From: Closterium sp. NIES-65
Lineage: Eukaryota > Streptophyta > Zygnematophyceae > Desmidiales > Closteriaceae
NCBI GenBank assembly: GCA_948144175.1
Contig: CANXME010002308.1
Location: 232,958 to 296,957 of the forward strand
Length of the DNA stretch: 64,000 nt
Reading direction: 5' to 3'
The notes under the pieces are model-generated. The model worked only from the letters and a program-made list of their open reading frames with translations. It was not told where the DNA came from and made no database searches. Of this stretch, positions 1 through 64,000 are shown one piece after another. Each line of letters opens with the position of its first letter. Within the stretch, counting starts at the first letter, position 1. A program made the translations under genes and the position numbers.

Positions 1-3000
1 CGTGGACATGGACGTGGACGTGGACATGGACATGGACGTGGACGTGGACGTGGACGTGGACATTGACGTGGACGAGGACATGGACGTGGACGTGGACGTG
101 GACATGGACGTGGACGTGGACGTGGACATGGACGTGGACGTGGACGTGGACGTGGACGTGGACGTGGACATGGACATGGACGTGGACGTGGACGTGGACG
201 TGGATATGGACGTGGACGTGGACGTGGACGTGGATGTGAACGTGGAGGACTTGGACGTGGACATGGACATGGACGTGGACGTGGACGTGGACGTGGACGT
301 GGACATGGACGTGGACGTGGACGTGGACGTGGACGTGGTCGTGGACGTGGACGTGGGCGTGGACGTGGACGTGGACGTGGACGTGGACATGGACGTGGAC
401 ATGGACGTGGACATGGACGTTGACATGGACGTGGACGTGGACATGGACGTGGACATGGACGTGGACGTGGACATGGACGTGGAAATGGACGTGGACGTGG
501 ACGTGGACGTAGACATGGACGTGGACGTGGACATGGACGTGGACGTGTACGTGGACGTGGATGGACATGGACGTGGACGTGGACGTGGACGTGGACGTGG
601 ACATGGACGTGGACGTGGACGTGGACGTGGACGTGGACATGGACGTGGACATGGACGTGGACGTGGACATGGACGTGGACATGGACTTGGACGTGGACGT
701 GGATGTGGACGTGGACATGGACGTGGACGTGGACGTGGACATGGACGTGGACATGGACGTGGACATGGATGTGGACGTAGACGTAAACATGGACGTGGAC
801 ATGGACGTGTACATGGACGTGAACATGGACGTGAACATGGACGTGGACATGGACGTGGACATGGACGTGGACATGGACGTGGACGTGGACATGGACATGG
901 ACGTGGACGTGGACGTGGACGTGGACATGGACATGGACGAGGACGTGGACGTGGACGTGGACGTGGACATGGACGTGGACGTGGACGTGGACATGGACGT
1001 GGACGTGGACGTGGACGTGGACGTGGACGTGGACGTGGACGTGGACATGGACGTGGACGTGGACGTGGACGTGGACGTGGACGTGGACGTGGACATGGAC
1101 GTGGACGTGGACGTGGATGTGGACGTGGAGGACTTGGACGTGGACATGGACATGGACGTGGACGTGGACGTGGACGTGGACGTGGACATGGACGTGGACG
1201 TGGACGTGGACGTGGATGGACATGGACGTGGACGTGGACGTGGACGTGGACATGGACGTGGACGTGGACGTGGACGTGGACATGGACGTGGACGTGTACG
1301 TGGACGTGGATGGACGTGGACGTGGACGTGGACGTGGACGTGGACGTGGATATGGACGTGGACGTGGACGTGGACGTGGATGGACATGGACGTGGACGTG
1401 GACGTGGACGTGGACATGGACGTGGACGTGGACGTGTACGTGGACGTGGATGGACGTGGACGTGGACGTGGACGTGGACGTGGACGTGGACATGGACGTG
1501 GACGTGGACGTGGACGTGGACATGGACGTGGACATGGACGTGGACGTGGACGTGGATGTGGACGTGGTCATGGACGTGGACGTGGACGTGGACATGGACG
1601 TGGACATGGACGTGGACGTAGACGTAAACATGGACGTGGACATGGACGTGGACATGGACGTGGACATGGACGTGAACATGGACGTGGACATGGACGTGGA
1701 CATGGACGTGGACATGGACGTGGACATGGACATGGACATGGACGTGGACGTGAACATGGACGTGGACATGGACGTGGACGTGGACATGGACGTGGACGTG
1801 GACATGGACGTGGACATGGACGTGGACGTGGATGGACGTGGACGTGGACATGGTCGTGGACGTGGACGTGGACGTGGACATGGACGTGGACGTGGACGTG
1901 GACGTGGACGTGGACGTGGGCGTGGACGTGGACGTGGACGTGGACGTGGACGTGGACGTGGACGTGGAGGTGGACGTGGAGGTGGACGTGGACGTGGACG
2001 TGGAGGTGGACGTGGACGTGGACGTGGAGGTGGACGTGGACGTGGACGTGGACGTGGTCGTGGACGTGGACATGGACGTGGACGTGGACGTGGACGTGGA
2101 CGTGTACATGGACGTGGACGTGGACGTAGACGTGGACGTGGACATGGACGTGGACGTGGACGTGGACGTGGACGTGGACGAAGACTTGGACGTGGACGTG
2201 GACGTGGACGTGGACGTGGACATGGACGTGGACATGGACGTGGACGTGGACGTGGACATGGACGTGGACCTGGACGTGGACGTGGTCATAGACGTGGACG
2301 TGGACATGGACGTGGACATGGACGTGGACATGGACGTGGACGTGGACGTGGACGTGGACGTGGACATGGACGTGGACGTGGACGTGGACGTGGACATGGA
2401 CGTGGACGTGGACATGGACGTGGACATGGACGTGGACGTGGACGTGGACGTGGACGTGGACATGGACGTAGACGTGGACGTGGACATGGACGTGGACATG
2501 GACGTGGACGTAGACGTGGACATGGACGTGGACATGGACGTGGACATGGACGTGGACATGGACGTGGACATGGACGTGGACGTGGACATGGTCGTGGACG
2601 TGGACGTGGACGTGGGCGTGGACGTGGGCGTGGACGTGGACATGGACGTGGACGTGGACGTGGACATGGACGTGGACGTGGACGTGGACGTGGACATGGA
2701 CGTGGACGTGGACGTGGACGTGGACGTGGACGTGGACATGGACGTGGACGTAGATGTGGACGTAGACGTGGACATGGACGTGGACATGGACGTGGACATG
2801 GACGTGGACATGGACGTGGACATGGACGTGGACATGGACGTGGACATGGACGTCGACGTGGACGTGGACATGGACGTGGACGTGGACGTGGACGTGGACA
2901 TGGACGTGGACGAGGACGTGGACGTGGACGTGGACGTGGACATGGACGTGGACGTGGACGTAAACGTGGACGTGGACGTGGACATGGACGTGGACGTGGA

Positions 3001-3310
3001 CGTGGACGTGGACGTGGACGTGGAGGACTTGGACGTGGATATGGACGTGGACGTGGACGTGGACGTGTACGTGGACGTGGACGTACGTGACGTGGACGTG
3101 GACGTGGACGTGGACGTGGACGTGGACGTGGACGTGGTCGTGGACGTGGACGTGGACGTGGACATGGACGTGGACGTGGACGTGGACGTGGACGTGGACG
3201 TGGACATGGTCGTGGACGTGGACGTGGACGTGGACGTGGACGTGGACGTGGACGTGGACGTGGACGTGGTCGTGGTCGTGGACGTGAACGTGAACGTGGT
3301 CGTGGACGTG
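1..3310 (+). repeat. Higher-order repeat A, left (partial) copy
   Basis: This copy is paired with about 4,204-7,412. Shared landmarks are GGAGGACTTGG at 244/4,447, 1,127/5,322 and 3,022/7,121. A GGATGGACGTGG word recurs at 1,831/6,020, an AGGTGG cluster at 1,966/6,161, and GATGGAACG at 3,311/7,413. The offsets fall from about 4,203 to 4,102 bp, so the copies differ by gains and losses of hexamers. The left end is cut by the window edge. Confidence 0.85.
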
Positions 3311-6300
3311 GATGGAACGTGGACGTGGTCGTGGACGTGGACGTGGACGTAGACGTAAACATGGACGTGGACATGGACGTGGACATGGACGTGGACATGG
3401 ACGTGAACATGGACGTGGACATGGACGTGGACATGGACGTGGACATGGACGTGGACGTGGACATGGACATGGACGTGGACGTGGACGTGGACGTGGACAT
3501 GGACGTGGACGAGGACATGGACGTGGACGTGGACGTGGACATGGACGTGGACGTGGACGTGGACATGGACGTGGACGTGGACGTGGACGTGGACATGGAC
3601 ATGGACGTGGACGTGGACGTGGACGTGGATATGGACGTGGACGTGGACGTGGACGTGGACGTGGACGTGGACGTGGGCGTGGACGTGGACGTGGACGTGG
3701 ACGTGGACATGGACGTGGACATGGACGTGGACATGGACGTTGACATGGACGTGGACGTGGACATGGACGTGGACATGGACGTGGACGTGGACATGGACGT
3801 GGAAATGGACGTGGACGTGGACGTGGACGTAGACATGGACGTGGACGTGGACATGGACGTGGACGTGTACGTGGACGTGGATGGACATGGACGTGGACGT
3901 GGACGTGGACGTGGACGTGGACATGGACGTGGACGTGGACGTGGACGTGGACGTGGACATGGACGTGGACATGGACGTGGACGTGGACATGGACGTGGAC
4001 ATGGACTTGGACGTGGACGTGGATGTGGACGTGGACATGGACGTGGACGTGGACGTGGACATGGACGTGGACATGGACGTGGACGTAGACGTAAACATGG
4101 ACGTGGACATGGACGTGTACATGGACGTGAACATGGACGTGAACATGGACGTGGACATGGACGTGGACATGGACGTGGACATGGACGTGGACGTGGACAT
4201 GGACATGGACGTGGACGTGGACATGGACGTGGACATGGACATGGACGAGGACGTGGACGTGGACGTGGACGTGGACATGGACGTGGACGTGGACGTGGAC
4301 ATGGACGTGGACGTGGACGTGGACGTGGACGTGGATGTGGACGTGGACGTGGACGTGGACGTGGACATGGACGTGGACGTGGACGTGGACGTGGACGTGG
4401 ACGTGGACGTGGACATGGACGTGGACGTGGGTGTGGATGTGGACGTGGAGGACTTGGACGTGGACATGGACATGGACGTGGACGTGGACGTGGACGTGGA
4501 CATGGACGTGGACGTGGACGTGGACGTGGATGGACATGGACGTGGACGTGGACGTGGATATGGACGTGGACATGGACGTGGACGTGGGCGTGGACGTGGA
4601 CGTGGACGTGGACGTGGACATGGACGTGGACATGGACGTGGACATGGACGTTGACATGGACGTGGACGTGGACATGGACGTGGACATGGACGTGGACGTG
4701 GACATGGACGTGGAAATGGACGTGGACGTGGACGTGGACGTGGACATGGACGTGGACGTGTACGTGGACGTGGATGGACATGGACGTGGACGTGGACGTG
4801 GACGTGGACGTGGACATGGACGTGGACGTGGACGTGGACGTGGACGTGGACATGGACGTGGACATGGACGTGGACGTGGACATGGACGTGGACATGGACT
4901 TGGACGTGGACGTGGATGTGGACGTGGACATGGACGTGGACGTGGACGTGGACATGGACGTGGACATGGACGTGGACGTAGACGTAAACATGGACGTGGA
5001 CATGGACGTGTACATGGACGTGAACATGGACGTGAACATGGACGTGGACATGGACGTGGACATGGACGTGGACATGGACGTGGACGTGGACATGGACATG
5101 GACGTGGACGTGGACGTGGACGTGGACATGGACATGGACGAGGACGTGGACGTGGACGTGGACGTGGACATGGACGTGGACGTGGACGTGGACATGGACG
5201 TGGACGTGGACGTGGACGTGGACGTGGACGTGGACGTGGACATGGACGTGGACGTGGACGTGGACGTGGACGTGGACGTGGACGTGGACATGGACGTGGA
5301 CGTGGACGTGGATGTGGACGTGGAGGACTTGGACGTGGACATGGACATGGACGTGGACGTGGACGTGGACGTGGACGTGGACATGGACGTGGACGTGGAC
5401 GTGGATGTGGATGGACATGGACGTGGACGTGGACGTGGACATGGACGTGGACGTGGACGTGGACGTGGACATGGACGTGGACGTGTACGTGGACGTGGAT
5501 GGACGTGGACGTGGACGTGGACGTGGACGTGGACGTGGACATGGACGTGGACGTGGACGTGGACGTGGATGGACATGGACGTGGACGTGGACGTGGACGT
5601 GGACATGGACGTGGACGTGGACGTGGACGTGTACGTGGACGTGGATGGACGTGGACGTGGACGTGGACGTGGACGTGGACGTGGACATGGACGTGGACGT
5701 GGACGTGGACGTGGACATGGACGTGGACATGGACGTGGACGTGGATGTGGACGTGGTCATGGACGTGGACGTGGACGTGGACATGGACGTGGACATGGAC
5801 GTGGACGTAGACGTAAACATGGACGTGGACATGGACGTGGACATGGACGTGGACATGGACGTGAACATGGACGTGGACATGGACGTGGACATGGACGTGG
5901 ACATGGACGTGGACATGGACATGGACATGGACGTGGACGTGAACATGGACGTGGACATGGACGTGGACGTGGACATGGACGTGGACGTGGACATGGACGT
6001 GGACATGGACGTGGACGTGGATGGACGTGGACGTGGACATGGTCGTGGACGTGGACGTGGACGTGGACATGGACGTGGACGTGGACGTGGACGTGGACGT
6101 GGACGTGGGCGTGGACGTGGACGTGGACGTGGACGTGGACGTGGACGTGGACGTGGACGTGGAGGTGGACGTGGAGGTGGACGTGGACGTGGACGTGGAG
6201 GTGGACGTGGACGTGGACGTGGAGGTGGACGTGGACGTGGACGTGGACGTGGTCGTGGACGTGGACATGGACGTGGACGTGGACGTGGACGTGGACGTGT

Positions 6301-7412
6301 ACATGGACGTGGACGTGGACGTAGACGTGGACGTGGACATGGACGTGGACGTGGACGTGGACGTGGACGTGGAGGTGGACGTGGACGAAGACTTGGACGT
6401 GGACGTGGACGTGGACGTGGACGTGGACGTGGACATGGACGTGGACATGGACGTGGACGTGGACGTGGACATGGACGTGGACGTGGACGTGGACGTGGAC
6501 ATGGACGTGGACGTGGACATGGACGTGGACATGGACGTGGACGTGGACGTGGACGTGGACGTGGACATGGACGTGGACGTGGACGTGGACATGGACGTGG
6601 ACATGGACGTGGACGTAGACGTGGACATGGACGTGGACATGGACGTGGACATGGACGTGGACATGGACGTGGACATGGACGTGGACGTGGACATGGTCGT
6701 GGACGTGGACGTGGACGTGGGCGTGGACGTGGGCGTGGACGTGGACATGGACGTGGACGTGGACGTGGACATGGACGTGGACGTGGACGTGGACGTGGAC
6801 ATGGACGTGGACGTGGACGTGGACGTGGACGTGGACGTGGACATGGACGTGGACGTAGATGTGGACGTAGACGTAGACATGGACGTGGACATGGACGTGG
6901 ACATGGACGTGGACATGGACGTGGACATGGACGTGGACATGGACGTGGACATGGACGTCGACGTGGACGTGGACATGGACGTGGACGTGGACGTGGACGT
7001 GGACATGGACGTGGACGAGGACGTGGACGTGGACGTGGACGTGGACATGGACGTGGACGTGGACGTAAACGTGGACGTGGACGTGGACATGGACGTGGAC
7101 GTGGACGTGGACGTGGACGTGGAGGACTTGGACGTGGATATGGACGTGGACGTGGACGTGGACGTGGACGTGGACGTGGACGTGGACGTGGACGTAGACG
7201 TGGACGTGGACGTGGACGTGGACGTGGACGTGGACGTGGACGTGGACGTGGACGTGGTCGTGGACGTGGACGTGGACGTGGACGTGGACGTGGACGTGGA
7301 CGTGGACGTGGACGTGGACATGGTCGTGGACGTGGACGTGGACGTGGACGTGGACGTGGACGTGGACGTGGTCGTGGTCGTGGACGTGAACGTGAACGTG
7401 GTCGTGGACGTG
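3311..7412 (+). repeat. Higher-order repeat A, right copy (about 4.1 kb)
   Basis: This is the second copy of the 4.1-4.2 kb unit, bounded on both sides by the word GATGGAACG (3,311 and 7,413). Its first ~0.9 kb (3,311-4,203) corresponds to sequence left of the window. It also holds a nested duplication: the junction GTGTACGTGGACGTGGATGG lies at about 3,863 and again 893 bp later, and GGAGGACTTGG lies at 4,447 and again 875 bp later. Confidence 0.85.
3440..5330 (+). repeat. Nested ~0.88 kb tandem duplication inside repeat A
   Basis: Two consecutive stretches share the same order of rare words: a GGGCGTGG unit, a GTTGACATGG unit, a GGAAATGG unit, then GTGTACG with GGATGGACATGG, ACTTGG, GTAGACGTAAACATGG and GTGAACATGGACGTGAACATGG, ending in GGAGGACTTGG. 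The GGATGGACATGG words are 893 bp apart (3,881 and 4,774) and the GGAGGACTTGG words 875 bp apart. The edges are approximate. Confidence 0.75.
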
Positions 7413-7622
7413 GATGGAACGTGGACGTGGTCGTGGACGTGGACGTGGACGTGGTCGTGGACGTGGACGTGGACCTGGACGTGGACCTGGACGTGGACGT
7501 GGTCGTGGACGTGGACGTGGACATGGACGTGGATGTGGACGTGGACATGGACGTGGACGTGGACGTGGTCGTCGACGTCGACATGGACGTAGACTTAGAG
7601 GTGGTCGTGGACGTGGACGTGG
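7413..7622 (+). repeat. Left edge of satellite block B before the retroelement
   Basis: After the GATGGAACG word the variant set changes. TCGTGG appears at least five times and ACCTGG twice within 210 bp; these are typical of the array right of the retroelement and essentially absent from block A. A 12-nt palindrome GTCGACGTCGAC lies at 7,571-7,582. The last five bases, CGTGG, are the left half of the target-site duplication. Block B therefore begins about 200 bp before the insertion. Confidence 0.8.
7618..7622 (+). repeat. Target-site duplication, left half (CGTGG)
   Basis: CGTGG immediately precedes the TG of the left LTR and is repeated at 15,164-15,168 after the CA of the right LTR. Removing the element and one copy leaves the hexamer register intact. 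Five bases is the normal Copia duplication length. Because the target is itself a hexamer repeat, a chance match is possible but would need the correct phase. Confidence 0.8.
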
Positions 7623-7755
7623 TGTCAGAACATATAGCTTACTTGTTTCTGTAGGCTATAGTGGGGTATCCCATAGGGGGTACAACCCAATTAGGGTTTC
7701 CTATTTGTACCCACTTTATTTCATAGTCATCCACTCCCGTTCATTCAGTTTCACA
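7623..7755 (+). repeat. 5' LTR of the Copia element
   Basis: This 133-bp terminal repeat starts TGTCAG and ends TTCACA, matching 15,031-15,163 at 132 of 133 positions. It is short for a plant Copia LTR. It is AT-richer than the rest of the element and contains CATATAG and CTATAG words that could serve the promoter, but no core promoter can be fixed by eye. Confidence 0.96.
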
Positions 7756-7773
7756 TGGTATAGAGCGGGTCCC
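7756..7773 (+). promoter_or_regulatory. Primer-binding site resembling initiator tRNA-Met
   Basis: Directly after the left LTR the sequence begins TGGTAT and continues AGAGC. This closely resembles the minus-strand primer site complementary to the 3' end of initiator tRNA-Met, the usual primer of plant Copia elements. The match is approximate. Confidence 0.7.
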
Positions 7774-8075
7774 TTCTAAGGACCGTTTTTTTTTGGGCCC
7801 ACCCACGATCTTTTTTTTCCTGCCCGGAGCGCGCCCTATTCTCCTCGAGGCGCGCTCCCCCTAGTGCGCGTCGAGCTGCCCTTGTGGCGCCCCGAGAGTC
7901 GCGCGCGCGACTCATTTTTTTTTTCGCGCGTGCGGCCCGGGCCCCACTTCGCGCGGCCCTTACAGCCGCGCCGCGCCGCCCTCTCGGCTCTGCCGCGCCG
8001 CGCCGCCCTCAAGACGGCCGCGCGGCCTCTTCGTCGCTGCGGCAGGCCCCCCCCCCCCCCGCTGCACCTCTGTCG
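7774..8075 (+). other. Untranslated leader, first part (homopolymer and GC-rich)
   Basis: No open frame of note is supported here. The stretch holds T runs at 7,786-7,794, 7,811-7,818 and 7,915-7,924, alternating CG tracts around 7,860-8,035, and a 14-base C run at 8,047-8,060. Such a GC-rich leader is likely to be strongly structured in the RNA (inference). Confidence 0.7.
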
Positions 8076-8079
8076 GCCC

Positions 8080-8600
8080 CGCCGCCGCCTTACCTGACGG
8101 CCGCCGCCTCACCTGACGGCCCGCCGCCTCGCCCTCTGGCCCGCCACCTCACCAGACGGCCCTGCTGCCTCACCTGACGGCCCACTGTCTCACCTGCTGG
8201 CCCGCCACCTTACCTGACGGCCCCGCCGCCTCACCTGACGGCCCGCCGCCACCTTACCTGACGGCTTCGCCGCCTCACCTGACGGCCCGCCGCCTCACCT
8301 ACTGGCCCGCCACCTGACCTGACGGCCCCACCGCCTCACCTGACGGCCCGCCGCCTGACCTGCTGGCCCGCCACCTCACTGACGGCCCGCCGCCTCCCTC
8401 GCTGGCCCGCCACCTGATCTGACGGCCCCGCCGCCTCACCTGACGGCTCGCCGCCTCACCTGCTGGCCTGCCACCTGACCTGACGGCCCCGCCGCCTCAC
8501 CTACCGGCTCGCCACCTCACCTGCTGGCCCACTGCACCCTGACGGCCCCACCGTCCACTGTCCCGGCCCCGCCGCTGCACCCTGACGGCCCCGCCGTCCC
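8080..8600 (+). repeat. Leader minisatellite, imperfect 20-21 bp units
   Basis: The leader carries a run of imperfect 20-21 bp units built on GACGGCCCGCCGCCTCACCT. Three unit types (GACGGCCCC..., GACGGCCCG..., GCTGGCCCG...) recur in that order, giving a higher-order period near 62 bp. Towards the right end the units decay into CACCCTGACGGCCCC and CCGTCC forms. The repeat lies upstream of the likely gag start, so it is probably untranslated. Confidence 0.8.
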
Positions 8601-8624
8601 TTGTCCCGGCCCCGCCACTACACT

Positions 8625-8815
8625 GCAGCCGAGCCGCCCAGCAGCAGCCGAGCCGCCCAGCAGCAGCCGAGCCGCTCAGCAGCAGCCGAGCCGCCCAGCA
8701 GCAGCCGAGCCGCCCAGCAGCAGCCGAGCCGCCCAGCAGCACCCGAGCCGCCCGAGCCGCCCGAGCCGCCCGAGCCGCCCGAGCCGCCCGAGCCGCCCCA
8801 CCAGCCCGAGCCGCC
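8625..8815 (+). repeat. CAGCAGCAGCCGAGCCGCC and GAGCCGCCC minisatellites
   Basis: Two short tandem repeats abut here: 18-20 bp units of CAGCAGCAGCCGAGCCGCC up to about 8,740, then 9-bp units of GAGCCGCCC to about 8,800. The frame is open (Gln/Ser/Pro and Glu-Pro-Pro repeats) and runs into gag, but there is no ATG before 8,868, so I regard this as leader. Confidence 0.75.
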
Positions 8816-8867
8816 TGCTGCTGTCCTACCCGACTCTCCTAGCCCGGTGAGACTTTCAGCTGCTGCC

Positions 8868-9651
8868 ATGGCCACCCCCAATGTTCTTACTTTTGACGCT
8901 GAGGGGAGGGCCATTGACTTTGCCGTCTGGATTGAAGACCTGCAGCTGTACTTACTGTGTGATGCGATAGATGAGGTCTCTCTCTTTGACTTTGTCTCTG
9001 GCGCTGTCCCTGCCCCGCCTGCTGATGCTGACTCTGCTGCTCGCTCCAAGTGGGCGACCCGCGATGCTGCTGCACGTCTTGCTGTGCGTCGCCACCTCCC
9101 TTCCTCTGAGCGTGCCCACTTTAGTCAGTGCAAGACCGCTCAGGCCTTGTACGACGCTGTAGTTGCACGCTACTCCTCCCCTTCCTCCGCTACCCTTAGC
9201 CGCCTCATGCTGCCGTTTCTCTTCCCTGACATCGCTTCCTTTCCCACTGTTGCTGACCTAGTTACCCACCTCCGCGCTAGTGACACCCGCTACCGTGCTG
9301 CCCTTCCTGCTGAGTTCCGCGCTGCGAACCCTCCTCCCATGTACATCACTCTCTACTTTCTCGTCACCCGTCTCCCTGAGTCCCTTCGTGTCGTTAGGGA
9401 CCAGTTTCTCTCTGTCTGTCCCACCACTCTCACTGTCGACCTCCTTGAGGAGTCCCTGCTGGCGGCTGAGAAGAGTATTGTCGCTGTAGGGGCCTCTCGG
9501 GGTGACCCTCGCACCCCCATCTTTGAGGGGTGTGGTCCTTCCCCCCTGCTGCCCTCTGTCGCCTCTGCCGCTGCGGCCGACCTCGCTGGTTTTGAGTCGG
9601 TCGGCGCGGCGTCTGCCCCCAGCGGCAGACGCCGCTCTGGCAAGGGCAAGG
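8868..9651 (+). pseudogene. Copia gag, capsid-like domain
   Basis: The likely start is the ATG at 8,868 (MATPNVLTFD), in a strong GCCATGG context and the first ATG of this frame. The product begins with an N-terminal segment typical of plant Copia Gag (FAVWIEDLQLYL). A helical region follows, with KWATRDAAARLAVRRHLP, QCKTAQALYDAVVARYS and TVADLVTHLR. These match the Retrotran_gag/UBN2-type pattern of a W-x-D-A-A start, a hydrophobic helix and a T-A-x-x-L/Y-W/D step. Gag forms the virus-like particle that packages the RNA. The domain ends in a basic segment (SGRRRSGKGKGGKG), probably for nucleic-acid contact. It is part of a broken element. Family assignment is by motif only. Confidence 0.85.
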
Positions 9652-10020
9652 GGGGCAAGGGGGCGGGTGGAGCTAGAGGGGGCGGTGGAGGAGGCGGTGG
9701 GGGTGGAGGGGGGAGTGGGGGTGGCGGTGGGGGTGGTGGCGGGAGTGGAGGTACTAGTGGCGGCAGTGGAGGCGGAGGTGGCGGCGGAGGTGGTAGCGGA
9801 GGAGGCGGTGGGAGCGGTGGGAGCGACGGTCCTGGTGGGGGAGGTGGCGGTGGAGACGGGGGTGGCGGTGGAGGCGGGGGTGGCGGTGGAGGCGGGGGTC
9901 GGAGTGGCTCGTCCCAGCGGAGCAGCTCTGGGGGTGGTCAGCGCCAGCAGTAGCAGCAGCAGCAGCAGCAGCCGCAGCAGCAGCAGCGCTCTCGCACCGT
10001 CCCCGGCCCTCAGCAGCTCC
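9652..10020 (+). other. Gly-rich then Gln-rich tail of the gag region
   Basis: A tract of GGT/GGC/GGA/GGG codons encodes almost pure glycine with occasional serine up to about 9,905. It is followed by a short Ser-rich segment and a CAG/CAA-type glutamine stretch. This low-complexity linker joins the capsid-like domain to the Cys/His motif downstream. It is prone to slippage, so length differences among copies are expected. Confidence 0.8.
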
Positions 10021-10028
10021 GTGAGTGG

Positions 10029-10335
10029 TACTTGCAGCGTCAGCGCGGTGGTGCGCTTGGTCCCTGCCCCTACGTTCTTCGCACCGGTGACCGTGCGGGG
10101 GAGAGGTGTGGAGGCGCCCACACAGCCCGTCGCTGCTTTGGCCGCCTGACCGACGCCTGGCGTCAGCAGTTTCCGGAGGCCGCTGAGATCCCCCGCTGGG
10201 GAGAGCTGTCTAGGGCTGGAGTAGCTATTTATGATCTTGACTTTGATGCTATTCTCTCTGCTATGTATGCTGTGACTGGTAGTGATGAGGATGACTGTTA
10301 CCGGTGTTTCCCGCCCGACCCGGGCATTGGTACTG
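10029..10335 (+). pseudogene. Cys/His motif segment between gag and protease
   Basis: The peptide starts CPYVLRTGDRAGERC and continues to HTARRC, giving C-x13-C-x3-H-x4-C from codon 10,065. The position is that of the nucleocapsid zinc knuckle, but the spacing differs from the canonical C-x2-C-x4-H-x4-C. Beyond it lie FGRLTDAWRQQFPEAAEIPRW and DLDFDAILSAMYAV, which look like a folded helical segment. I infer a zinc-binding nucleocapsid equivalent. No sequence comparison was possible. Confidence 0.6.
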
Positions 10336-10800: not shown

Positions 10801-10869
10801 CTCCAGGTGCTGCGTCTGGTAGAGTCCCTTCGTCTGGTCAGGTGTTTGCTGCAGCGTCCAGGTCTGGTC

Positions 10870-52900: not shown

Positions 52901-54990
52901 CGTGGACGTAGACATTGACGTGGACGTGGAGGACGTGGACATGGACGTGGAGGACGTGGACGTAGACGTGGACGTCGACTTGGACGTGGACCTGGACGTG
53001 GACGTGGACCTGGACGTGGACGTGGACGTGGACGTGGTCGTGGACGTGGACGTGGACGTGGTCGTGGACGTGGATGTGGACGTGGACCTGGACGTGGACC
53101 TGGACGTGGTCGTGGACTTGGACGTGGACGTGGACTTGGACGTGGACGTGGACGTGGACGTGGACGTGGACGTGGACCTGGACGTGGACGTGGACGTGGT
53201 CGTGGACGAGGTCGTGGACGTGGACGTGGACGTGGACTTGGACTTGGACGTGGACGTGGATGTGGACGTGGACGTGGACGTGGTCGTGGACGTGGACGTG
53301 GACGTGGTCGTGGACGTGGACGTGGACGTTGACGTGGACCTGGACGTGGACGTGGACGTGGTTGTGGACGTGGTCGTGGACGTGGACGTGGACGTGGACG
53401 TGGTCGTGGACGTGGACGTGGATGTGTACCTGGACGTGGACGTGGACCTGGACGTGGACGTGGACGTGGACGTGGTCGTGGATGTGGACGTGGTTTTGGA
53501 CGTGGACGTGGTCCTGGATGTGGACATGGACGTGGACCTGGACCTGGACGTGGAGGTGGACGTGGACCTGGACGTGGACTTGGACGTGGACGTGGACGTG
53601 TACGTGCTTGTGGACGTGGACGTGGACGTGGACGTGGACGTAGTCGTGGACGTGGACGTGGACGTGGACGTGGTCATGGACGTGGACGTGGACGTCGACT
53701 TGGACGTGGTCGTGGACGTGGACGTGGACGTGGACATGGACGTGGACGTGGTCGTGGACATGGACGTGAACGTGGACGTGGACGTTGACGTGGACTTGGA
53801 CGTGGACCAGGACGTGGACATGGACGTGGACGTGGTTGTGGACGTGGACGTGGTCGTGAACGTGGACGTGGACGTTGACGTGGACTTGGACGTGGACCAG
53901 GACGTGGACATAGACGTGGACATGGACGTGGACGTGGACGTGGTCGTGGACCTGGACGTGGACCTGGACGTGGTCGTGGACGAGGTCGTGGACGTGGACG
54001 TGGACGTGGACGTGGACTTGGACTTGGACGTGGACGTGGATGTGGACGTGGACGTGGACGTGGTCGTGGACGTGGACGTGGTCGTGGTCGTGGACGTGGA
54101 CGTGGCATGGACGTGGTCGTGGACGTGGACGTGGACCTGGACGTGGACGTGGACATGGTCCTGGACGTGGACGTGGACGTGGACGTGGTCGTGGACGTGG
54201 ACGTGGATGTGGATGTGGACCTGGACGTGGACGTGGACCTCGACGTGGACGTGGACGTGGACGTGGACGTGGTCGTGGACGTGGACGTGGACCTAGACCT
54301 GGACGTGGTCCTGGACGTGGACGTGGACGTGGACGTGGACCTGGACGTGGACGTGGAGGTGGACGTGGACCTGGACGTGGACTTGGACGTAGACGTGGAC
54401 GTGGACGTGGACGTGGACGTGGTTGTGGACGTGGACTTGGACGTGGACGTGGTCGTGGACGTGGACGTGGTCGTGGACGTGGACGTGGACGTGGTCGTGG
54501 ACGTGGACGTGGACGTGGTCGTGGACGTGGACGTGGACGTGGTCGTGGACGTGGTCGTGGACGTGGACGTGGACGTGGACGTGGACGTGGACATGGACAT
54601 GGACGTGTTCGTGGTCGTGGACGTGGACGTGGACGTGGTCGTAAACGTGGACGTGGACATTGACGTGGACATAGACGTGGACGTGGACGTGGACGTGGAC
54701 GTGGTCGTGGACGTGGACGTGGACGTGGACGTGGAAAGGTCGTGGATGTGGACGTGGACGTGGACCTGGACCTGGACGTGGACGTGTACCTGGACGTGGA
54801 CGTGGACTTGGACGTGGACGTAGACATTGACGTGGACGTGGAGGACGTGGACATGGACGTGGAGGACGTGGACGTAGACGTGGACGTCGACTTGGACGTG
54901 GACCTGGACGTGGACGTGGACCTGGACGTGGACGTGGACGTGGACGTGGTCGTGGACGTGGACGTGGACGTGGTCGTAGACGTGGACGTG
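51000..54990 (+). repeat. 1.9-kb tandem duplication
   Basis: The words GGTTTTGG (51,654/53,493), the GGATGGACGTGG/GGCATGGACGTGG junction (52,214/54,107), and GTGTACCTGG with GACATTGACG (52,872/54,784) repeat at 1,839-1,912 bp. The unit overlaps the right part of the second 4.0-kb copy, so this is a later duplication within that copy. Confidence 0.8.
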
Positions 54991-55000
54991 GACCTTGACC

Positions 55001-58000
55001 TGGACGTGGACGTGGAGGTGGACGTGGACCTGGACGTGGACTTGGACGTGGACGTGGACGTGGACGTGGTCGTGGACGTGGACGTGGACGTGGACGTGGA
55101 CGTGGTCGTGGACATGGACGTGGAGGTGGACGTGGTCGTGGACGTGGACGTGGACATGGACGTGGACGTGGACATGGACGTGGTCGTGGACGTGGACGTG
55201 GTCGTGGACGTGGACGTGGACATGTACATGGACGTGGACGTGGTCGTGGACGTGGATGTGGACGTGGACGTGGTCGTGAACGTGGACGTGGACGTTGACG
55301 TGGACTTGGACGTGGACCAGGACGTGGACATAGACGTGGACGTGGACGTGGACGTGGTCGTGGACGTGGACGTGGTCGTGGACGTGGACGTGGTCGTGGA
55401 CCTGGACGTGGACGTGGACTTGGACGTGGACGTGGACTTTGACGTGCACGTGGACGTGTAGGACGTGGACGTGGACATGGACTTGGACATGGACCTGGAC
55501 GTGGACGCGGACTTGGACATGGACGTGGACCTGGACCTGGACGTGGATGTGGACGTGGACGTGGACTTGGACGTGGACCTGGACGTGGACGCGGACGTGG
55601 ACCTGGATCTGGACCTGGACGTGGATGTGGACGTGGACGTGGACGTGGATGGGATGTGGACGTGGACGTGGACGTGGACGTGGACGTAGAGGTGGATGTG
55701 GACGTGGACGTGGACGTGGACGTGGAGGTGGATGTGGACGTGGACGTGGACGTGGACGTGGTTGTGGACGTGGACGTCGACGTGGACGTGGATCTGGACC
55801 TGGACGTGGACGTGGAGGTGGATGTGGACCTGGACGTGGACGTAGACGTAGACAAGGACGTGGTCGTGAACGTGGACATGGACGTAAATCTGGACGTGGA
55901 CGTGGAGGTGGACGTGGACCTGGACGTGGACATGGACTTGGACGTGGACGTGGACGTGGACGTGGTCGTGGACGTGGACGTGGACGTGGTCGTGGACCTG
56001 GACGTGGTCGTGGACGTGGATGTGGACGTGGACCTCGACATGGACGTGGACGTGGACATGGATGTGGACCTGGACGTGGACGTGGACGTGGATGTGGACG
56101 TGGACGTGGTTGTGGACGTGGAAGTGGACGTGGACGTGGACGTGGACGTGGTCGTGGACGTGGACGTGGACGTGGACGTAAACCTGGATGTGGACGTGGA
56201 GGAGGACGTGGACCTGGACGTGGACTTGGACGTGGACATGGACAAGGACGTGGTCGTGGACGTGAACGTGGATGTGGACGTGGTCATGGACGTGGACGTG
56301 GTCGTGGACGTGGACGTGGACGTGGACCTCGACATGGACGTGGACGTGGACGTGGACTTGGACGTGGACGTGGACGTGGACGTGGTCGTGGACGTGGACG
56401 TGGACGTGGACGTGGTCGTGGACGTGGACGTGGACATGGACGTGGACGTGGACTTGGACGTGGACGTGGACGTGGGTTTGGACGTGGACCTGGACCTCGA
56501 CGTGGACGTGCACGTGGACGTGGACGTGGACGTGGACGTGGCAAGGACGTGGACCTGGACGTGGTCGAAGACGTGGACGTGGACATGGAGGACGTGGACG
56601 TGGATGTGGACGTGGTCGTGGACGTGGACGTGGACGTGGAGGTGGACGTGAACGTGGACTTGGATGTGGACGTGGACCTGAACGTGGACCTGGACGTGAA
56701 CGTGGACGTGGACGTGGACGTGGACTTGGACGTGGACGTGGATATGGACGTGGACGTGTTCGTGGATGTGGACGTGGACGTGGACGTGGTCGTGGACGTG
56801 GACGTAGACGTGTACGTGGACGTGGTCGTGGACGTGGACGTGGACGTGGACCTGGACGTGGACGTGGACGTGGACGTGGTTGTGGACGTGGACGTGGATT
56901 TGGACGTGGACGTGGACTTGGACGTGGACGTGGACGTGGACGTGGTCCTGGACGTGGACGTGGACGTGGACGTGGACTTGGACGTGGATGTGGACGTGGA
57001 CGTGGAGGTGGACGTGGACCTGGACGTGGACTTGGACGTGGACGTGGACGTGGACGTGGTCGTGGACGTGGACGTGGACGTGGACGTGGACGTGGTCGTG
57101 GACATGGACGTGGAGGTGGACGTGGTCGTGGACGTGGACGTGGACATGGACGTGGACGTGGACATGGACGTGGTCGTGGACGTGGACGTGGTCGTGGACG
57201 TGGACGTGGACATGTACATGGACGTGGACGTGGTCGTGGACGTGGATGTGGACGTGGACGTGGTCGTGAACGTGGACGTGGACGTTGACGTGGACTTGGA
57301 CGTGGACCAGGACGTGGACATAGACGTGGACGTGGACGTGGACGTGGTCGTGGACGTGGACGTGGTCGTGGACGTGGACGTGGTCGTGGACCTGGACGTG
57401 GACGTGGACTTGGACGTGGACGTGGACTTTGACGTGCACGTGGACGTGTAGGACGTGGACGTGGACATGGACTTGGACATGGACCTGGACGTGGACGCGG
57501 ACTTGGACATGGACGTGGACCTGGACCTGGACGTGGATGTGGACGTGGACGTGGACTTGGACGTGGACCTGGACGTGGACGCGGACGTGGACCTGGATCT
57601 GGACCTGGACGTGGATGTGGACGTGGACGTGGACGTGGATGGGATGTGGACGTGGACGTGGACGTGGACGTGGACGTAGAGGTGGATGTGGACGTGGACG
57701 TGGACGTGGACGTGGAGGTGGATGTGGACGTGGACGTGGACGTGGACGTGGTTGTGGACGTGGACGTCGACGTGGACGTGGATCTGGACCTGGACGTGGA
57801 CGTGGAGGTGGATGTGGACCTGGACGTGGACGTAGACGTAGACAAGGACGTGGTCGTGAACGTGGACATGGACGTAAATCTGGACGTGGACGTGGAGGTG
57901 GACGTGGACCTGGACGTGGACATGGACTTGGACGTGGACGTGGACGTGGACGTGGTCGTGGACGTGGACGTGGACGTGGTCGTGGACCTGGACGTGGTCG

Positions 58001-58995
58001 TGGACGTGGATGTGGACGTGGACCTCGACATGGACGTGGACGTGGACATGGATGTGGACCTGGACGTGGACGTGGACGTGGATGTGGACGTGGACGTGGT
58101 TGTGGACGTGGAAGTGGACGTGGACGTGGACGTGGACGTGGTCGTGGACGTGGACGTGGACGTGGACGTAAACCTGGATGTGGACGTGGAGGAGGACGTG
58201 GACCTGGACGTGGACTTGGACGTGGACATGGACAAGGACGTGGTCGTGGACGTGAACGTGGATGTGGACGTGGTCATGGACGTGGACGTGGTCGTGGACG
58301 TGGACGTGGACGTGGACCTCGACATGGACGTGGACGTGGACGTGGACTTGGACGTGGACGTGGACGTGGACGTGGTCGTGGACGTGGACGTGGACGTGGA
58401 CGTGGTCGTGGACGTGGACGTGGACATGGACGTGGACGTGGACTTGGACGTGGACGTGGACGTGGGTTTGGACGTGGACCTGGACCTCGACGTGGACGTG
58501 CACGTGGACGTGGACGTGGACGTGGACGTGGCAAGGACGTGGACCTGGACGTGGTCGAAGACGTGGACGTGGACATGGAGGACGTGGACGTGGATGTGGA
58601 CGTGGTCGTGGACGTGGACGTGGACGTGGAGGTGGACGTGAACGTGGACTTGGATGTGGACGTGGACCTGAACGTGGACCTGGACGTGAACGTGGACGTG
58701 GACGTGGACGTGGACTTGGACGTGGACGTGGATATGGACGTGGACGTGTTCGTGGATGTGGACGTGGACGTGGACGTGGTCGTGGACGTGGACGTAGACG
58801 TGTACGTGGACGTGGTCGTGGACGTGGACGTGGACGTGGACGTGGACCTGGACGTGGACGTGGACGTGGACGTGGTTGTGGACGTGGACGTGGATTTGGA
58901 CGTGGACGTGGACTTGGACGTGGACGTGGACGTGGACGTGGTCCTGGACGTGGACGTGGACGTGGACGTGGACTTGGACGTGGATGTGGACGTGG
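55001..58995 (+). repeat. 1,990-bp tandem duplication, essentially identical copies
   Basis: From 55,001 and 56,991 the sequence reads the same for about 1.85 kb, including all rare words: GGACTTTGACGTGCACG, GTGTAGGACG, GGACGCGGACTTGG, GGATGGGATGTGG, GACAAGGACGTGG, GTAAATCTGG, GGGTTTGG and GGTCGAAGACG. The 331-codon frame that happens to lie across 55,656 and 57,646 translates identically. The first difference I find is one extra hexamer near 58,835. Before 55,001 the flanks differ. This is the most recent amplification in the window, unless it is an assembly artefact. Confidence 0.9.
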
Positions 58996-61900
58996 ACGTT
59001 GACGTGGACGTGGAGGACGTGGACGTGGACGTGGACGTGGCAAGGACGTGGACCTGGACGTGGTCGTGGACGTGGATGTGGACGTGGACGTGGAGGACGT
59101 GGACGTGGACGTGGTCGTGGACGTGGACGTGGACTTGGACGTGGACTTGGACCTGGACGTGGACCTGGACGTGGACGTGGACGTGAACCTAGACGTGGAC
59201 GAGGACGTAAACGTGGACGTGGACCTGGACGTGGACTTGGACGTGGACTTGGACGTGGACGTGGACGTGGTCGTGCACGTGGACGTAGACGTGGACATGG
59301 ACTTGGACTTGGACGTGGACGTGGATGTGGACGTGGACGTGGACCTGGACCTGGACGTGGACCTGGACTTGGACGTGGACTTGGACGTGGACGTGGACGT
59401 GGTCGTGGACGTGGACGTGGACCTGGACGTGGACTGACGTGGTCGTGGACGTGGACGTGGACGTGGAGGACGTAGACGTGGACGTGGATGTGGCAAGGAC
59501 GTGGACCTGGACGTGGTCGTGGACGTGGACGTGGACGTGGAGGACGTGGACGTGGACTGACGTGGACCTGGACGTGGACCTGGACATGGACGTGGACGTG
59601 GACCTGGACGTGGACGTAGACGTGGACGTGGACGTGGACGTGGACCTGGACGTGGACTTGGACGTGGACTTGGACGTGGACTTGGACGTGGACATGGACG
59701 TGGAGGACGTGGACGTGGACGTGGAGGACGTGGACGTGGACGTGGCAAGGACGTGGACCTGGACGTGGTTGTGGACGTGGACGTGGACGTGGACATGGAG
59801 GACGTGGACTTGGACGTGGACGTGGACGTGGTCGTGGACATGGACGTGGACGTGGAGGTGGACTTGAACGTGGACTTGGACGTGGACGTGGACGTGGATC
59901 TTGACGTGGACCTGGACGTGGACGTGGACGTGGACCTGGACATGGACGTGGACGTGGACGTGTTCGTGGACGTGGACATAGACGTGGACTTGGACGTGGA
60001 CCTGGACCTGGACCTGGACATGGACTTGGACGTGGACGTGGACGTGGTTGTGGACGTGGACCTGGACGTGGACGTGGACGTGGTCGTGGACGTGGACGTG
60101 GACGTGGAAAGGTCGTGGACGTGGACGTGGACGTGGACGTGGACCTGGACCTGGACGTGGATGTGGACGTGTACCTAGACGTGGACGTGGACTTGGACGT
60201 GGACGTGGACATTGACGTGGACGTGGAGGACGTGGACGTGGACATGGAGGACGTGGACGTGGACGTGGACGTGGACTTGGACGTGGACCTGGACGTGGAC
60301 GCGGACGTGGACGTGGACGTGGACGTGGACGTGGACCTGGACGTGGACGTGGACGTGGACGTAGACGTGGATGGGATGTGGACGTGGACGTGGACGTGGA
60401 CGTGGACGTGGAGGTGGATGTGGACGTGGACGTGGACGTGGACGTGGACGTGGAGGTGGATGTGGACGTGGACGTGGACGTGGACGTGGACGTGGTTGTG
60501 GACGTGGACGTCGACGTGGACGTGGATCTGGACCTGGACGTGGAGGTGGAGGTAGACGTGGACCTGGACGTGGACGTGGACGTGGACATGGTCGTGAACG
60601 TGGACTTGGACGTAAACCTGGACGTGGACGTGGAGGTGGACGTGGACCTGGACGTGGACGTGGACTTGGACGTGGACGTGGACGTGGACGTGATCGTGGA
60701 CGTGGACGTGGACGTGGTCGTGGACGTGGACGTGGTCGTGGACGAGGACGTGGACGTGGATGTGGACCTCGACATGGACGTGGACGTGGACGTGGACATG
60801 GATGTGGACCTGGACCTGGACGTGGACGTGGACGTGGACGTGGTCGTGGACGTGGAAGTGGACGTGGACGTGGACGTGGACGTGGTCGTGGACGTGGACG
60901 TGGACGTAAACCTAGACGTGGACGTGGAGGTGGACGTGGACCTGGACGTGGACGTGGACTTGGACGTGGACGTGGACGTGGATGTGGACGTGGACGTGGA
61001 CGTGGACGTGGACGTGGTTGTGGACGTGGACGTCGACGTGGACGTGGATCTGGACCTGGACGTGGACGTGGAGGTGGACGTGGACCTGGACGTGGACGTG
61101 GACTTGGACGTGGACGTGGTCGTGAACGTAGACGTGGACGTAAATCTGGACGTGGACGTGGAGGTGGACGTGGACCTGGACTTGGACGTGGACTTGGACG
61201 TGGACGTGGACGTGGTCGTGGACGTGGACGTGGTCGTGGACGTGGACGTGGTCGTGGACGTGGACGTGGACGTGGACCTCGACATGGACGTGGACGTGGA
61301 CGTGGACATGGATGTGGACCTGGACGTGGACGTGGACGTGGACGTGGACGTGGACGTGGTCGTGGACGTGGAAGTGGACGTGGACGTGGACGTGGTCGTG
61401 GACGTGGACGTGGACGTGGACGTGGACGTAAACCTGGACGTGGACGTGGAGGAGGACGTGGACCTGGACGTGGACTTGGACGTGGACATGGACGTGGACG
61501 TGGTCGTGGACGTGGACGTGGACGTGGACTTGGTCATGGACGTGGACGTAGTTGTGGACGTGGACGTGGACGTGGACCTCGACATGGACGTGGACGTGGA
61601 CGTGGACTTGGACGTGGACGTGGACGTGGTCGTGGACGTGGACGAGGACGTGGACGTGGACGTGGTCGTGGACGTGGACGTGGACATGGACGTGGACGTG
61701 GACTTGGACGTGGACGTGGACGTGGACGTGGGTTTAGACGTGGACCTGGACCTCGACGTGGACATGGACGTGCACGTGGACGTGGACGTGGACGTGGACG
61801 TGGACGTGGCAAGGACGTGGACCTGGACGTGGTCGTGGACGTGGACGTGGATGTGGACATGGAGGACGTGGACGTGGACGTGGTCGTGGACGTGGACGTG

Positions 61901-63800
61901 GAGGTGGACGTGAACGTGGACTTGGATGTGGACGTGGACCTGAACGTGGACCTGGACGTGAACGTGGACGTCGACGTGGACGTGGACTTGGACGTGGACG
62001 TGGATATGGACGTGGACGTGTTCGTGGATGTGGACGTGGACGTGGACGTGGTCGTGGACGTGGACGTAGACGTGTACGTAGACGTGGTCGTGGACGTGGA
62101 CGTGGACGTGGACCTGGACGTGGACGTGGACGTGGACGTGGACGTGGTTGTGGACGTGGACGTGGACTTGGACGTGGACGTGGACTTGGACGTGGACGTG
62201 GACGTGGACGTGGACCTGGACGTGGACGTGGACGTGGACGTGGACTTGGACGTCGATGTGGACGTGGACGTTGACGTGGACGTGGAGGACGTGGACGTGG
62301 ACGTGGACGTGGCAAGGACGTGGACCTGGACGTGGTCGTGGACGTGGATGTGGACGTGGACATGGAGGACGTGGACGTGGACGTGGACGTGGTCGTGGAC
62401 GTGGACGTGGACGTGGACTTGGACGTGGACTTGGACCTGGACGTGGACCTGGACGTGGACATGGACGTGAACCTAGGAGTGGACGAGGACGTGAACGTGG
62501 ACGTGGACGTGGACGTGGACCTGGACGTGGACTTGGACGTGGACTTGGACGTGGACGTGGACGTGGTCGTGCACGTGGACGTGGACGTGGACATGGACTT
62601 GGACTTGGACGTGGACGTGGATGTGGACGTGGACGTGGACCTGGACCTGGACGTGGACCTGGACTTGGACGTGGACTTGGACGTGGACGTGGACGTGGAC
62701 GTGATCGTGGACGTGGACGTGGACCTAGATGTGGACGTGGACGTGGACGTGGTCGTGGACGTGGTTGTGGACGTGGACGTGGACGTGGACGTGGAGGACG
62801 TAGACGTGGACGTGGATGTGGCAAGGACGTGGACCTGGACGTGGTCGTGGACGTGGACGTGGACGTGGAGGACGTGGACGTGGACGTGGTCGTGGACGTG
62901 GACGTGGACTTGGACGTGGACTTGGACCTGGACGTGGACCTGGACATGGACGTGGACGTGGACCTGGACGTGGACGTGGACGTGGACGTGGACCTGGACG
63001 TGGACTTGGACGTAGACTTGGACGTGGACTTGGACGTGGACATGGAAGTGGAGGACGTGGACGTGGATGTGGAGGACGTGGACGTGGACGTGGCAAGGAC
63101 GTGGACCTGGACGTGGTTGTGGACGTGGACGTGGACGTGGACATGGAGGACGTGGACTTGGACGTGGACGTGGACGTGGTCGTGGACATGGACGTGGACG
63201 TGGAGGTGGACGTGAACGTGGACTTGGACGTGGACGTGGACGTGGATCTAGACGTGGACCTGGACGTGGACGTGGACGTGGACCTGGACATGGACGTGGA
63301 CGTGGACGTGGACGTGGTCGTGGACGTGGACATAGACGTGGACTTGGACGTGGACCTGGACCTGGACCTGGACGTGGACTTGGACGTGGACGTAGATGTG
63401 GACGTGGTTGTGGACGTGGACCTGGACGTGGACGTGGACGTGGTCGTGGACGTGGACGTGGACGTGGAAAGGTCGTGGACGTGGACGTGGACGTGGACGT
63501 GGACTTGGACCTGGACGTGGATGTGGACGTGTACCTAGACGTGGACTTGGACGTGGACGTGGACATTGACGTGGACGTTGACGTGGACTTGGACGTGGAC
63601 GTGGACGTGGACGTGGACGTGGACGTGGACGTGGACGTGGACGTGGACGTGGACGTGGACGTGGACGTGGACGTGGACGTGGACGTGGACGTGGACGTGG
63701 ACGTGGACGTGGACGTGGATTTGGACGTGGACTGGACGTCGATGTGGACGTGGACGTGGACGTGGACGTGGACGTGGACGTGGACGTGGACGTGGCAAGG
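56540..63800 (+). repeat. GGCAAGG-punctuated ~0.5-kb subunits and 3.3-kb repeat
   Basis: GGCAAGGACGTGGACCTGG occurs at 56,540, 58,530, 59,039, 59,492, 59,744, 61,808, 62,311, 62,820, 63,092 and 63,794. Three of the intervals are 503-509 bp. The series 58,530-59,744 is repeated as 61,808-63,092 at offsets of 3,278, 3,272, 3,328 and 3,348 bp, and GGAAAGGTCG recurs at 60,106/63,466 (3,360). So a 3.3-kb unit is itself made of ~0.5-kb subunits. Confidence 0.8.
63591..63719 (+). repeat. Longest perfect (GGACGT)n tract, 129 bp
   Basis: From 63,591 to 63,719 the hexamer repeats without any substitution, about 21 perfect units. Elsewhere perfect stretches rarely pass 10 units. It begins after a GACTTGG unit and ends at GGATTTGG. 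Confidence 0.9.
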
Positions 63801-64000
63801 ACGTGGACCTGGACGTGGTCGTGGACGTGGACGTGGACATGGAGGACGTGGACGTGGACGTGGACGTGGTCATGGACGTGGACGTGGACGTGGAGGTGGA
63901 CGTGGACGTGGACTTGGACGTGGACGTGGACCTGAACGTGGACCTGGACGTGGACGTGGACGTGGACGTGGACGTGGACTTGGACGTGGACGTGGACGTG
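63720..64000 (+). repeat. Right end of the window, still hexamer satellite
   Basis: GGATTTGG and a GACTGGACGTCG junction follow the pure tract, then another GGCAAGG unit (63,794) with GGACATGGAGGACG. Nothing but the hexamer array is present up to the window edge. Confidence 0.9.

What the first reader, a model, noticed from the sequence alone, without database searches (positions are those of the whole stretch)
1..64000. A hexamer satellite of more than 56 kb with fixed orientation and register
About 56.5 kb (roughly 9,400 units) of ACGTGG run in one direction, nearly all variation being single-base changes that keep the six-base spacing. Hexamer tandem arrays of this length other than telomeric repeats are rare, and the unit is not a known telomere motif. 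Strand asymmetry (G-rich plus strand, one CpG per unit) is kept throughout, and no inverted segment was seen.
Basis: seen in the sequence. Interest (0 to 1): 0.75.

Follow-up and report, generated by a model that had tools for sequence, protein, structure and literature searches.

The report
Subtelomeric hexamer satellite of an alga
This is a very long run of one six-base DNA repeat that, elsewhere in the same (probably green-algal) genome, sits near a chromosome end between other repeats and the telomere; it looks like non-coding satellite DNA that keeps being copied, flipped and exchanged.

Summary
The array is real: 56,459 bp of ACGTGG (about 9,410 units) at window 1-7622 and 15164-64000, all on one strand. 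It is not one block or one register: a 7,541-bp Ty1-copia element (133-bp LTRs, CGTGG duplication) interrupts it, and about 246 phase shifts and several higher-order duplications run through it. The window ends at a contig end, so the array is truncated.

In its own genome (874 Mb) the unit is a major satellite: 101,667 exact 30-mers against 13 for the reversed control; the window holds 222. It occurs in satellite mosaics with a 371-bp satellite (75%-alike halves of about 185 bp) and 31-, 20- and 18-mers. Samples of one contig read hexamer, 18-mer, then TTTAGGG over its last 5 kb. One exact hexamer/18-mer junction recurs on 8 contigs, an exact 371-bp/hexamer junction 82 times on 47 contigs, 23 times as convergent pairs. 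So it is most likely a subtelomeric satellite, spread by exchange between chromosome ends; its orientation is not fixed outside the window.

The host is probably a Closterium alga (recalled resemblance and assembly size; not proved). Telomere repeats between inverted 18-mer arrays at two places hint at old end fusions.

The parts
1..7622 (+). Hexamer array, left part; ACATGG-rich subfamily (24% ACATGG in 1-7000) with higher-order copies at lags of 0.9, 3.3 and 4.1-4.2 kb; ACATGG falls to 7% in 7001-7622
7623..15163 (+). Ty1-copia LTR retrotransposon inserted in the array: 133-bp LTRs (TG...CA), TGGTATAGAGC after the 5' LTR (its likeness to a plant initiator-tRNA primer site is recalled), gag, integrase, SH3-like and RVT_2 matches; reading frame broken by two in-frame TAG codons and a frameshift
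   Evidence: its first 2.9 kb matched at 40 places including itself (43 pieces), the 40 candidates scored out of 12,493 of the first look
7623..7755 (+). 5' LTR, 1 of 133 positions differs from the 3' LTR
15031..15163 (+). 3' LTR
7618..7622 (+). Target-site duplication CGTGG, left copy; removing one copy and the element restores the hexamer phase (only a 5-base duplication does so among 0-6 tested)
15164..15168 (+). Target-site duplication CGTGG, right copy
15164..64000 (+). Hexamer array, right part; TCGTGG/ACCTGG/ACTTGG-rich subfamily in domains with own higher-order periods (2.3 kb at 16-20 kb; 0.8/2.7/3.5 kb at 24-29 kb; 2.5 kb at 36-38 kb; 1.8-1.9 kb at 51-53 kb); runs off the contig end
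   Evidence: contig end
55001..58841 (+). Tandem duplication of period 1,990 bp: 55001-56851 is identical to 56991-58841 (1,851 bp without a difference)

Best explanation
The window is part of a non-coding subtelomeric satellite. Inferred order from the chromosome interior outwards: 371-bp satellite (with LTR elements), hexamer array, 18-mer satellite, TTTAGGG telomere. Shown: linkage of the hexamer to a terminal telomere on one contig (by samples), recurrence of exact junctions on many contigs, local tandem duplications, insertion of a retroelement into the array. Inferred: the array grows by replication slippage and unequal exchange between sister chromatids, and the junctions were copied from chromosome end to chromosome end by exchange between subtelomeres, which also homogenises the unit. 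It probably acts as a passive heterochromatic buffer between genes and telomere; no sequence-specific role is supported. Which chromosome end, if any, the window's own contig belongs to is not shown.
For: Terminal linkage: C131 (135,491 bp) samples read hexamer(-) at 1, hexamer(+) at 10, 14 and 17 kb, an abrupt switch to the 18-mer at 17,250, 18-mer in 10 of 10 samples from 20 to 126 kb and up to 130.4 kb, then TTTAGGG in the samples at 130.4, 131.5 and 135.1-135.49 kb, the contig end. The same hexamer/18-mer junction word occurs on 8 contigs, a second form twice on C754 (10 matches, 9 contigs; reversed control 0); 18-mer was read beyond it on C5 and on C490, C644, C693, C813, C1274 and C1926. 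The 371-bp/hexamer junction 22-mer occurs 82 times on 47 contigs (36 +, 46 -, control 0). Abundance 71,811 + 29,856 exact 30-mers, control 5 + 8. Higher-order copies and an exact 1,851-bp duplication. The window's contig carries the same kind of neighbours: 20-mer, 31-mers, 371-bp satellite, copia elements, hexamer also at 35 and 45 kb. Two larger contigs meet the hexamer at an end: C637 (1.33 Mb) in samples at 1 and 50 kb and a word at 74 kb, not in samples at 85, 100 and 200 kb; C1806 (480 kb) from 375 kb to its end, not in samples at 1 and 300 kb. Non-coding: stops in 11 of 12 frame-by-part readings and 90 of 246 phase shifts not by 3 bases.
Against: Only one contig shows hexamer and a terminal telomere together, and it was sampled, not read through. 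C64, the other contig seen with TTTAGGG at its end, shows no hexamer or 18-mer in six samples (1, 30, 60, 90, 120 and 136 kb); its length, 142,500, suggests an artificial cut. C173 and C1330 carry telomere repeats inside 18-mer arrays, so the 18-mer is not always terminal. Beyond the 18-mer, C5 continues into a 31-mer satellite, C693 has copia at its start and C1926 non-satellite sequence at its end. C2010 shows no telomere or 18-mer word in the window or in the other stretches read. No cytology or read data.
Confidence: 0.67

Rival explanations
1. Centromeric or pericentromeric satellite: the 371-bp nucleosome-dimer satellite is the centromere repeat and the hexamer forms cores between its inverted arms.
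For: 371 bp is two halves 75% alike of about 185 bp; 23 convergent junction pairs bound hexamer between inverted 371-bp arms (interior read in 6 of them), arms 92-97% identical over 210 bp in five, 96% over 48 bp in C5; retroelements sit in the 371-bp arrays.
Against: The hexamer is linked through the 18-mer to a terminal telomere on C131 and to the same 18-mer on 8 contigs by one junction. Desmid chromosomes are described as holocentric (PMC3897674, passages seen), if the host is a desmid. No CENH3 data.
Confidence: 0.15
2. Assembly or read artefact: the array length, the inversions and the contig structure come from mis-joined or fold-back long reads.
For: The array ends at a contig end; an exact 1,851-bp tandem duplication is the kind of thing assemblers can create; 8 of 34 contig lengths seen are exact multiples of 2,500, so contigs seem to have been cut artificially.
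Against: Fold-back reads give symmetric palindromes; in 6 of 6 fetched cassettes one hexamer arm is long and the other about 90-130 bp, and the switch sequence is shared by 5 of 6 at imperfect identity. The junction word recurs on 47 contigs. Phase-shift motifs recur along the array (GTGGCAAGGACGTGG 12 times, GTGGAGGACGTGG 90 times). The LTR element restores phase with a 5-base duplication.
Confidence: 0.08
3. The repeat encodes a dipeptide-repeat protein (RG, VD, TW or VH/ST/PR) and is kept by selection.
For: Long open stretches, e.g. 2,008 aa on the minus strand at 1568-7594.
Against: The hexamer is a stop codon by one change in few frames, so open frames are expected; stops occur in 11 of 12 frame-by-part readings (0 only in one minus frame of the left part); 90 of 246 phase shifts break the frame; the residue pair changes along the 2,008-aa ORF.
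Confidence: 0.02
4. A sink for ACGT-core (bZIP, ABRE-like) transcription factors.
For: Each unit holds ACGT followed by GG, the ABRE core as recalled.
Against: The core is not the conserved part: in the right part A0 is changed in 12%, C1 7%, G2 17%, T3 2% of units against G4 7% and G5 3%. No expression data.
Confidence: 0.04

Closest known systems
Subtelomeric satellites of green algae and plants (Chlamydomonas Sultan and Suber named in PMC10030371, passages seen; plant examples recalled)
   Same: Tandem arrays inside the telomere, sharing among chromosome ends, mixture with transposable elements (the traits of the known families are recalled)
   Different: Simple 6-bp unit instead of a long one; sits inside an 18-mer layer; inverted-arm cassettes with a 371-bp satellite (the comparison of unit sizes is recalled; the primary paper PMC8287924 was not held)
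Simple-sequence satellites of Drosophila heterochromatin (recalled)
   Same: Short unit, long homogeneous arrays, variant subfamilies
   Different: Subtelomeric linkage, GC-rich unit with a CpG, kb-scale higher-order repeats
Human chromosome 2 fusion site (PMC12926204, search listing and start of abstract only)
   Same: Subterminal repeats around a fusion point; opposite orientation around telomere remnants (recalled), as at C173 and C1330
   Different: Here the flanks are the 18-mer satellite on both sides, at two places, with 3 or 10 telomere units
Schizosaccharomyces pombe centromere (central core with inverted repeats; recalled)
   Same: A core between inverted repeat arms
   Different: Core here is a hexamer satellite of variable length, arms are satellite arrays; linkage is to a telomere

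Membership tests
Satellite DNA | Head-to-tail tandem arrays of many kilobases, abundant in the genome | tested here: met
   56.5 kb in the window; 101,667 exact 30-mers genome-wide, control 13
Satellite DNA | Evolves by local amplification (higher-order repeats, subfamilies) | tested here: met
   Domains and lags; exact 1,851-bp duplication
Subtelomeric satellite | Lies near terminal telomere arrays | tested here: met
   C131 order hexamer, 18-mer, TTTAGGG to the contig end in samples; one contig only, about 113 kb from the telomere
Subtelomeric satellite | Present at several chromosome ends with shared junctions | tested here: inconclusive
   Shared hexamer/18-mer junction on 8 contigs, but only C131 was seen to reach a terminal telomere
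Telomeric repeat | Is the terminal repeat at chromosome ends | tested here: not met
   Terminal repeat of C131 is TTTAGGG; hexamer lies about 113 kb inside
Centromeric satellite | Bound by CENH3 / at the primary constriction | not testable with these tools
   No ChIP or cytology
Protein-coding repeat gene | One frame kept open | tested here: not met
   Stops in 11 of 12 frame-by-part readings and frame-breaking shifts
Ty1-copia LTR retrotransposon (the interrupting element) | LTRs, integrase before RVT_2 reverse transcriptase, 5-bp target duplication | tested here: met
   Pfam RVT_2 3.1e-49, gag_pre-integrs 2.3e-9, SH3_retrovirus 5.9e-18; rve 1.4e-7 and Retrotran_gag_2 8.5e-6 just under their cut-offs; LTRs and CGTGG duplication
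Host is a Closterium alga (C. psl. complex, perhaps strain NIES-65) | Sequence identity to a named Closterium record | not tested
   No named eukaryote collection here. Hints: recalled likeness of the polyprotein; assembly 874.1 Mb against 876 Mb for NIES-65 (PMC10407611 Table 1, section 7 read); 8 of 34 contig lengths are multiples of 2,500, which may fit linked-read processing (inference; ARCS scaffolding of NIES-65 in passages); plant-type telomere. rRNA searches gave no answer or met the cap

The most novel reading that the evidence does not exclude
The inverted satellite cassettes (371-bp arm, hexamer core, switch, inverted 371-bp arm) and the telomere relics between inverted 18-mer arrays are scars of end-to-end chromosome fusions, tolerated because the host's chromosomes are holocentric and then copied between chromosome ends. 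Hexamer cores would then be fossil chromosome ends, and the genome would keep a readable record of fusions.
Probability: 0.22. Interest if true: 0.7.

Novelty: new member of a known kind. Interest (0 to 1): 0.45.

Why it matters
In the listings of my paper searches for Closterium or Zygnematophyceae with satellite, centromere, chromosome, telomere or subtelomere terms (listings capped at 8-15 papers, open-licence papers only) I saw no title on chromosome-end architecture in this lineage, which belongs to the closest algal relatives of land plants (recalled) if the host assignment holds. The layered order and the reusable exact junctions make subtelomere exchange and chromosome-end fusion directly testable with a few probes. 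A holocentric host, where fusions could survive, would make such scars informative about karyotype change.

Tried and rejected
Telomere: rejected, the terminal repeat of C131 is TTTAGGG. Coding repeat: rejected. Origin from the gypsy-like element at the array's left edge (C2010:228.7-230.4 kb): 40 places were scored (7,406 candidates in the first look); the 39 that are not the query itself match only up to query position 1722-1763 and none continues into hexamer, so this is a breakpoint, not an origin, as far as those 40 go. Mutation spectrum: 509 discordant sites between higher-order copies mirror the standing variants (A0>T 129, CpG transitions 158), so mutation and conversion could not be separated and I make no methylation claim. 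Single-strand folding: pure hexamer folds better than shuffles on both strands (z -5.3, -6.1), four real array pieces weakly (z -2.06 to -0.35); no conclusion. Other organisms: the 36-mer occurs in 1 viral contig and 79 bacterial stretches with one or two exact matches each; not pursued. Copia RT in viral contigs and phages: none found. Rfam on window 7-16 kb: none. A rarer sampling word gave 4 places on 2 contigs. The sampling word gave 700 hits but only the first 100 places are listed, on 13 contigs of 115-154 kb; contig numbers do not look random in length, so this is no random sample.
Full report
OBSERVATION. The window is 64,000 bases of contig C2010 (232,958-296,957) in a held genome of 874,075,685 bases and 2,400 contigs; the contig is 296,957 bases long, so the window's right edge is the contig end. 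Hexamer ACGTGG fills 1-7622 and 15164-64000, 56,459 bp or 9,410 units, on the plus strand only. Of the units read in phase, 822 of 1,254 (left) and 4,866 of 8,000 (right) are exact; the left part is rich in ACATGG (24% in 1-7000), the right part in TCGTGG, ACCTGG and ACTTGG. A phase model finds 246 register breaks (23 + 223), 156 of them by three bases, so the register is interrupted about every 230 bp. Higher-order copies divide the array into domains, with main lags of 0.8-4.2 kb and one exact 1,851-bp tandem duplication at 55001/56991.

INTERRUPTING ELEMENT. 7623-15163 is a Ty1-copia element with 133-bp LTRs that differ at one position, a CGTGG target duplication and RVT_2 at 3.1e-49. Among target duplications of 0-6 bases only 5 restores the hexamer phase across the empty site, so it inserted into an existing array. 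Its frame is broken by two TAG codons and a frameshift. Its first 2.9 kb matched at 40 places including itself (43 pieces); only 40 of 12,493 first-look candidates were scored.

GENOME CONTEXT. The pure 30-mer occurs 71,811 + 29,856 times, reversed control 5 + 8; the window has 222. Each match start marks its own 6-bp unit, so at least 0.61 Mb; scaling by the window's own density would give about 26 Mb, by a pure array 0.6 Mb, and I do not narrow this. The 120-mer occurs 23,654 + 632 times, so some arrays, such as parts of C296, are almost pure. C2010 was read outside the window in 23 stretches: a 20-mer at 1-10 and 15-16 kb, hexamer at 35 and 45 kb, two 31-mers at 50-58 kb, a 371-bp satellite from 58 kb on with copia-like pieces between, a gypsy-like LTR piece at 228.7-230.4 kb broken against the hexamer, then hexamer to the end; the stretches at 25 and 135 kb matched none of these. 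The 371-bp unit is two 75%-identical halves of about 185 bp.

CHROMOSOME POSITION. TTTAGGG x6 occurs 2,042 + 610 times. On C131 the samples read hexamer (minus at 1, plus at 10, 14 and 17 kb), an abrupt switch at 17,250 to an 18-mer satellite (CCGGACGCATGCTTGTGT), 18-mer in 10 of 10 samples from 20 to 126 kb and up to 130.4 kb, then TTTAGGG in the samples at 130.4, 131.5 and 135.1-135.49 kb, the contig end. The junction word GTGGACATGGTCGCATGCTTG recurs on 8 contigs and a second form twice on C754. 18-mer was read beyond it on C5 and on C490, C644, C693, C813, C1274 and C1926; the end sample of C754 is 18-mer too. Not fitting a simple terminal layer: C693 begins with copia, C1926 ends in non-satellite sequence, and C5 goes on into a 31-mer. 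C637 (1.33 Mb) has hexamer at 1 and 50 kb and a hexamer word at 74 kb, and none in its samples at 85, 100 and 200 kb; C1806 has it from 375 kb to its end at 480 kb. I read this as a subtelomeric layer: 371-bp arrays, hexamer, 18-mer, telomere. Against: only one contig shows hexamer and a terminal telomere together; C64 ends in TTTAGGG without hexamer or 18-mer in six samples, but is exactly 142,500 bases long, an artificial-looking end; C2010 itself has no telomere or 18-mer word in what was read.

INVERTED CASSETTES. The exact 22-mer joining the 371-bp satellite to the hexamer occurs 82 times on 47 contigs (36 +, 46 -; reversed control 0). Among the 35 pairs of neighbouring matches on one contig, 23 are convergent (+ then -, 850 bp to 25.3 kb apart), one is divergent (224 kb apart), one is + +, and ten are - -. 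In the 6 cassettes fetched (C5, C873, C903, C1216, C1235, C2125) one arm of hexamer is long and the other only about 90-130 bp, the 371-bp arms are 92-97% identical over 210 bp in five (96% over 48 bp in C5), and the switch sequence is shared by 5 of 6 (C2125 differs); C903 and C1216 are 99.65% identical over 3.1 kb. So these cassettes probably share one origin and differ in core length; the other 17 pairs were not read inside. C5 also has a second, divergent switch at 114,726.

FUSION HINT. At C173:107.2 kb the order is 18-mer(+), CCCTAAA x3, 18-mer(-); at C1330:8.0 kb 18-mer(+), TTTAGGG x10, 18-mer(-). These look like old chromosome-end fusions or telomere repeats captured during break repair. 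A fused pair of ends losing its middle would give the convergent cassettes. This is inference. Desmids are described as holocentric (PMC3897674, passages), which would let fusions survive, if the host is a desmid.

HOST. Not proved. I recall copia polyproteins of this kind from Closterium; the assembly size (874.1 Mb) is near the 876 Mb given for strain NIES-65 (PMC10407611, section 7 read); the telomere is plant-type; 8 of the 34 contig lengths seen are exact multiples of 2,500, which may fit linked-read processing. Ribosomal RNA searches gave no answer or met the cap.

NOVELTY. A new member of a known kind (subtelomeric satellite DNA) with an unusual layered and inverted arrangement. A literature search for the words GTGGAC, tandem repeat and satellite together found no paper. 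PMC10407611 (passages, section 7) speaks of tandem-duplicated genes and repeat proportions; its main text holds no word beginning with centromere or telomere. Interest is moderate: the array itself is ordinary satellite biology, the junctions and possible fusion scars are the part worth testing.

The telomere of C131 is now given as sampled rather than read through, and contrary contig ends were added; confidence in the main reading went from 0.68 to 0.67 for that reason.

Noticed in passing
G000 C173:106901-107500 (L176) and C1330:7801-8300 (L180): Short telomere repeats between inverted 18-mer satellite arrays, possible end-fusion or break-repair scars.
   Followed up: partly
G000 contigs C64, C185, C199, C644, C813, C1274, C1330, C2125: Contig lengths that are exact multiples of 2,500 bases (142,500; 120,000; 115,000; 75,000; 67,500; 35,000; 35,000; 232,500), 8 of 34 seen: the assembly seems to have been cut at fixed windows, so these ends may not be natural.
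   Followed up: no
L012, L013 (C2010): 371-bp satellite made of two about 185-bp halves 75% alike, a nucleosome-sized candidate centromere or subtelomere repeat; not counted genome-wide.
   Followed up: partly
L130 (C101:1) and L171 (C173:30 kb): A 17-mer tandem repeat (GAGCTTGCCTGGTCCAG-like) in contigs that also carry these satellites.
   Followed up: no
L138, C296:46-63 kb: Stretches of nearly pure ACGTGG (many exact 120-mers), much more homogeneous than the window.
   Followed up: no
JAHBWH01 contigs (Myxococcales MAG ACE_MYX12): 20 of 79 bacterial stretches with the exact 36-mer come from one Myxococcales MAG: a short hexamer spread over its contigs.
   Followed up: no
window 8586-14818: The copia element is young by its LTRs (1 of 133 differs) yet its reading frame is broken, as if a defective copy was moved or the breaks are recent.
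   Followed up: no
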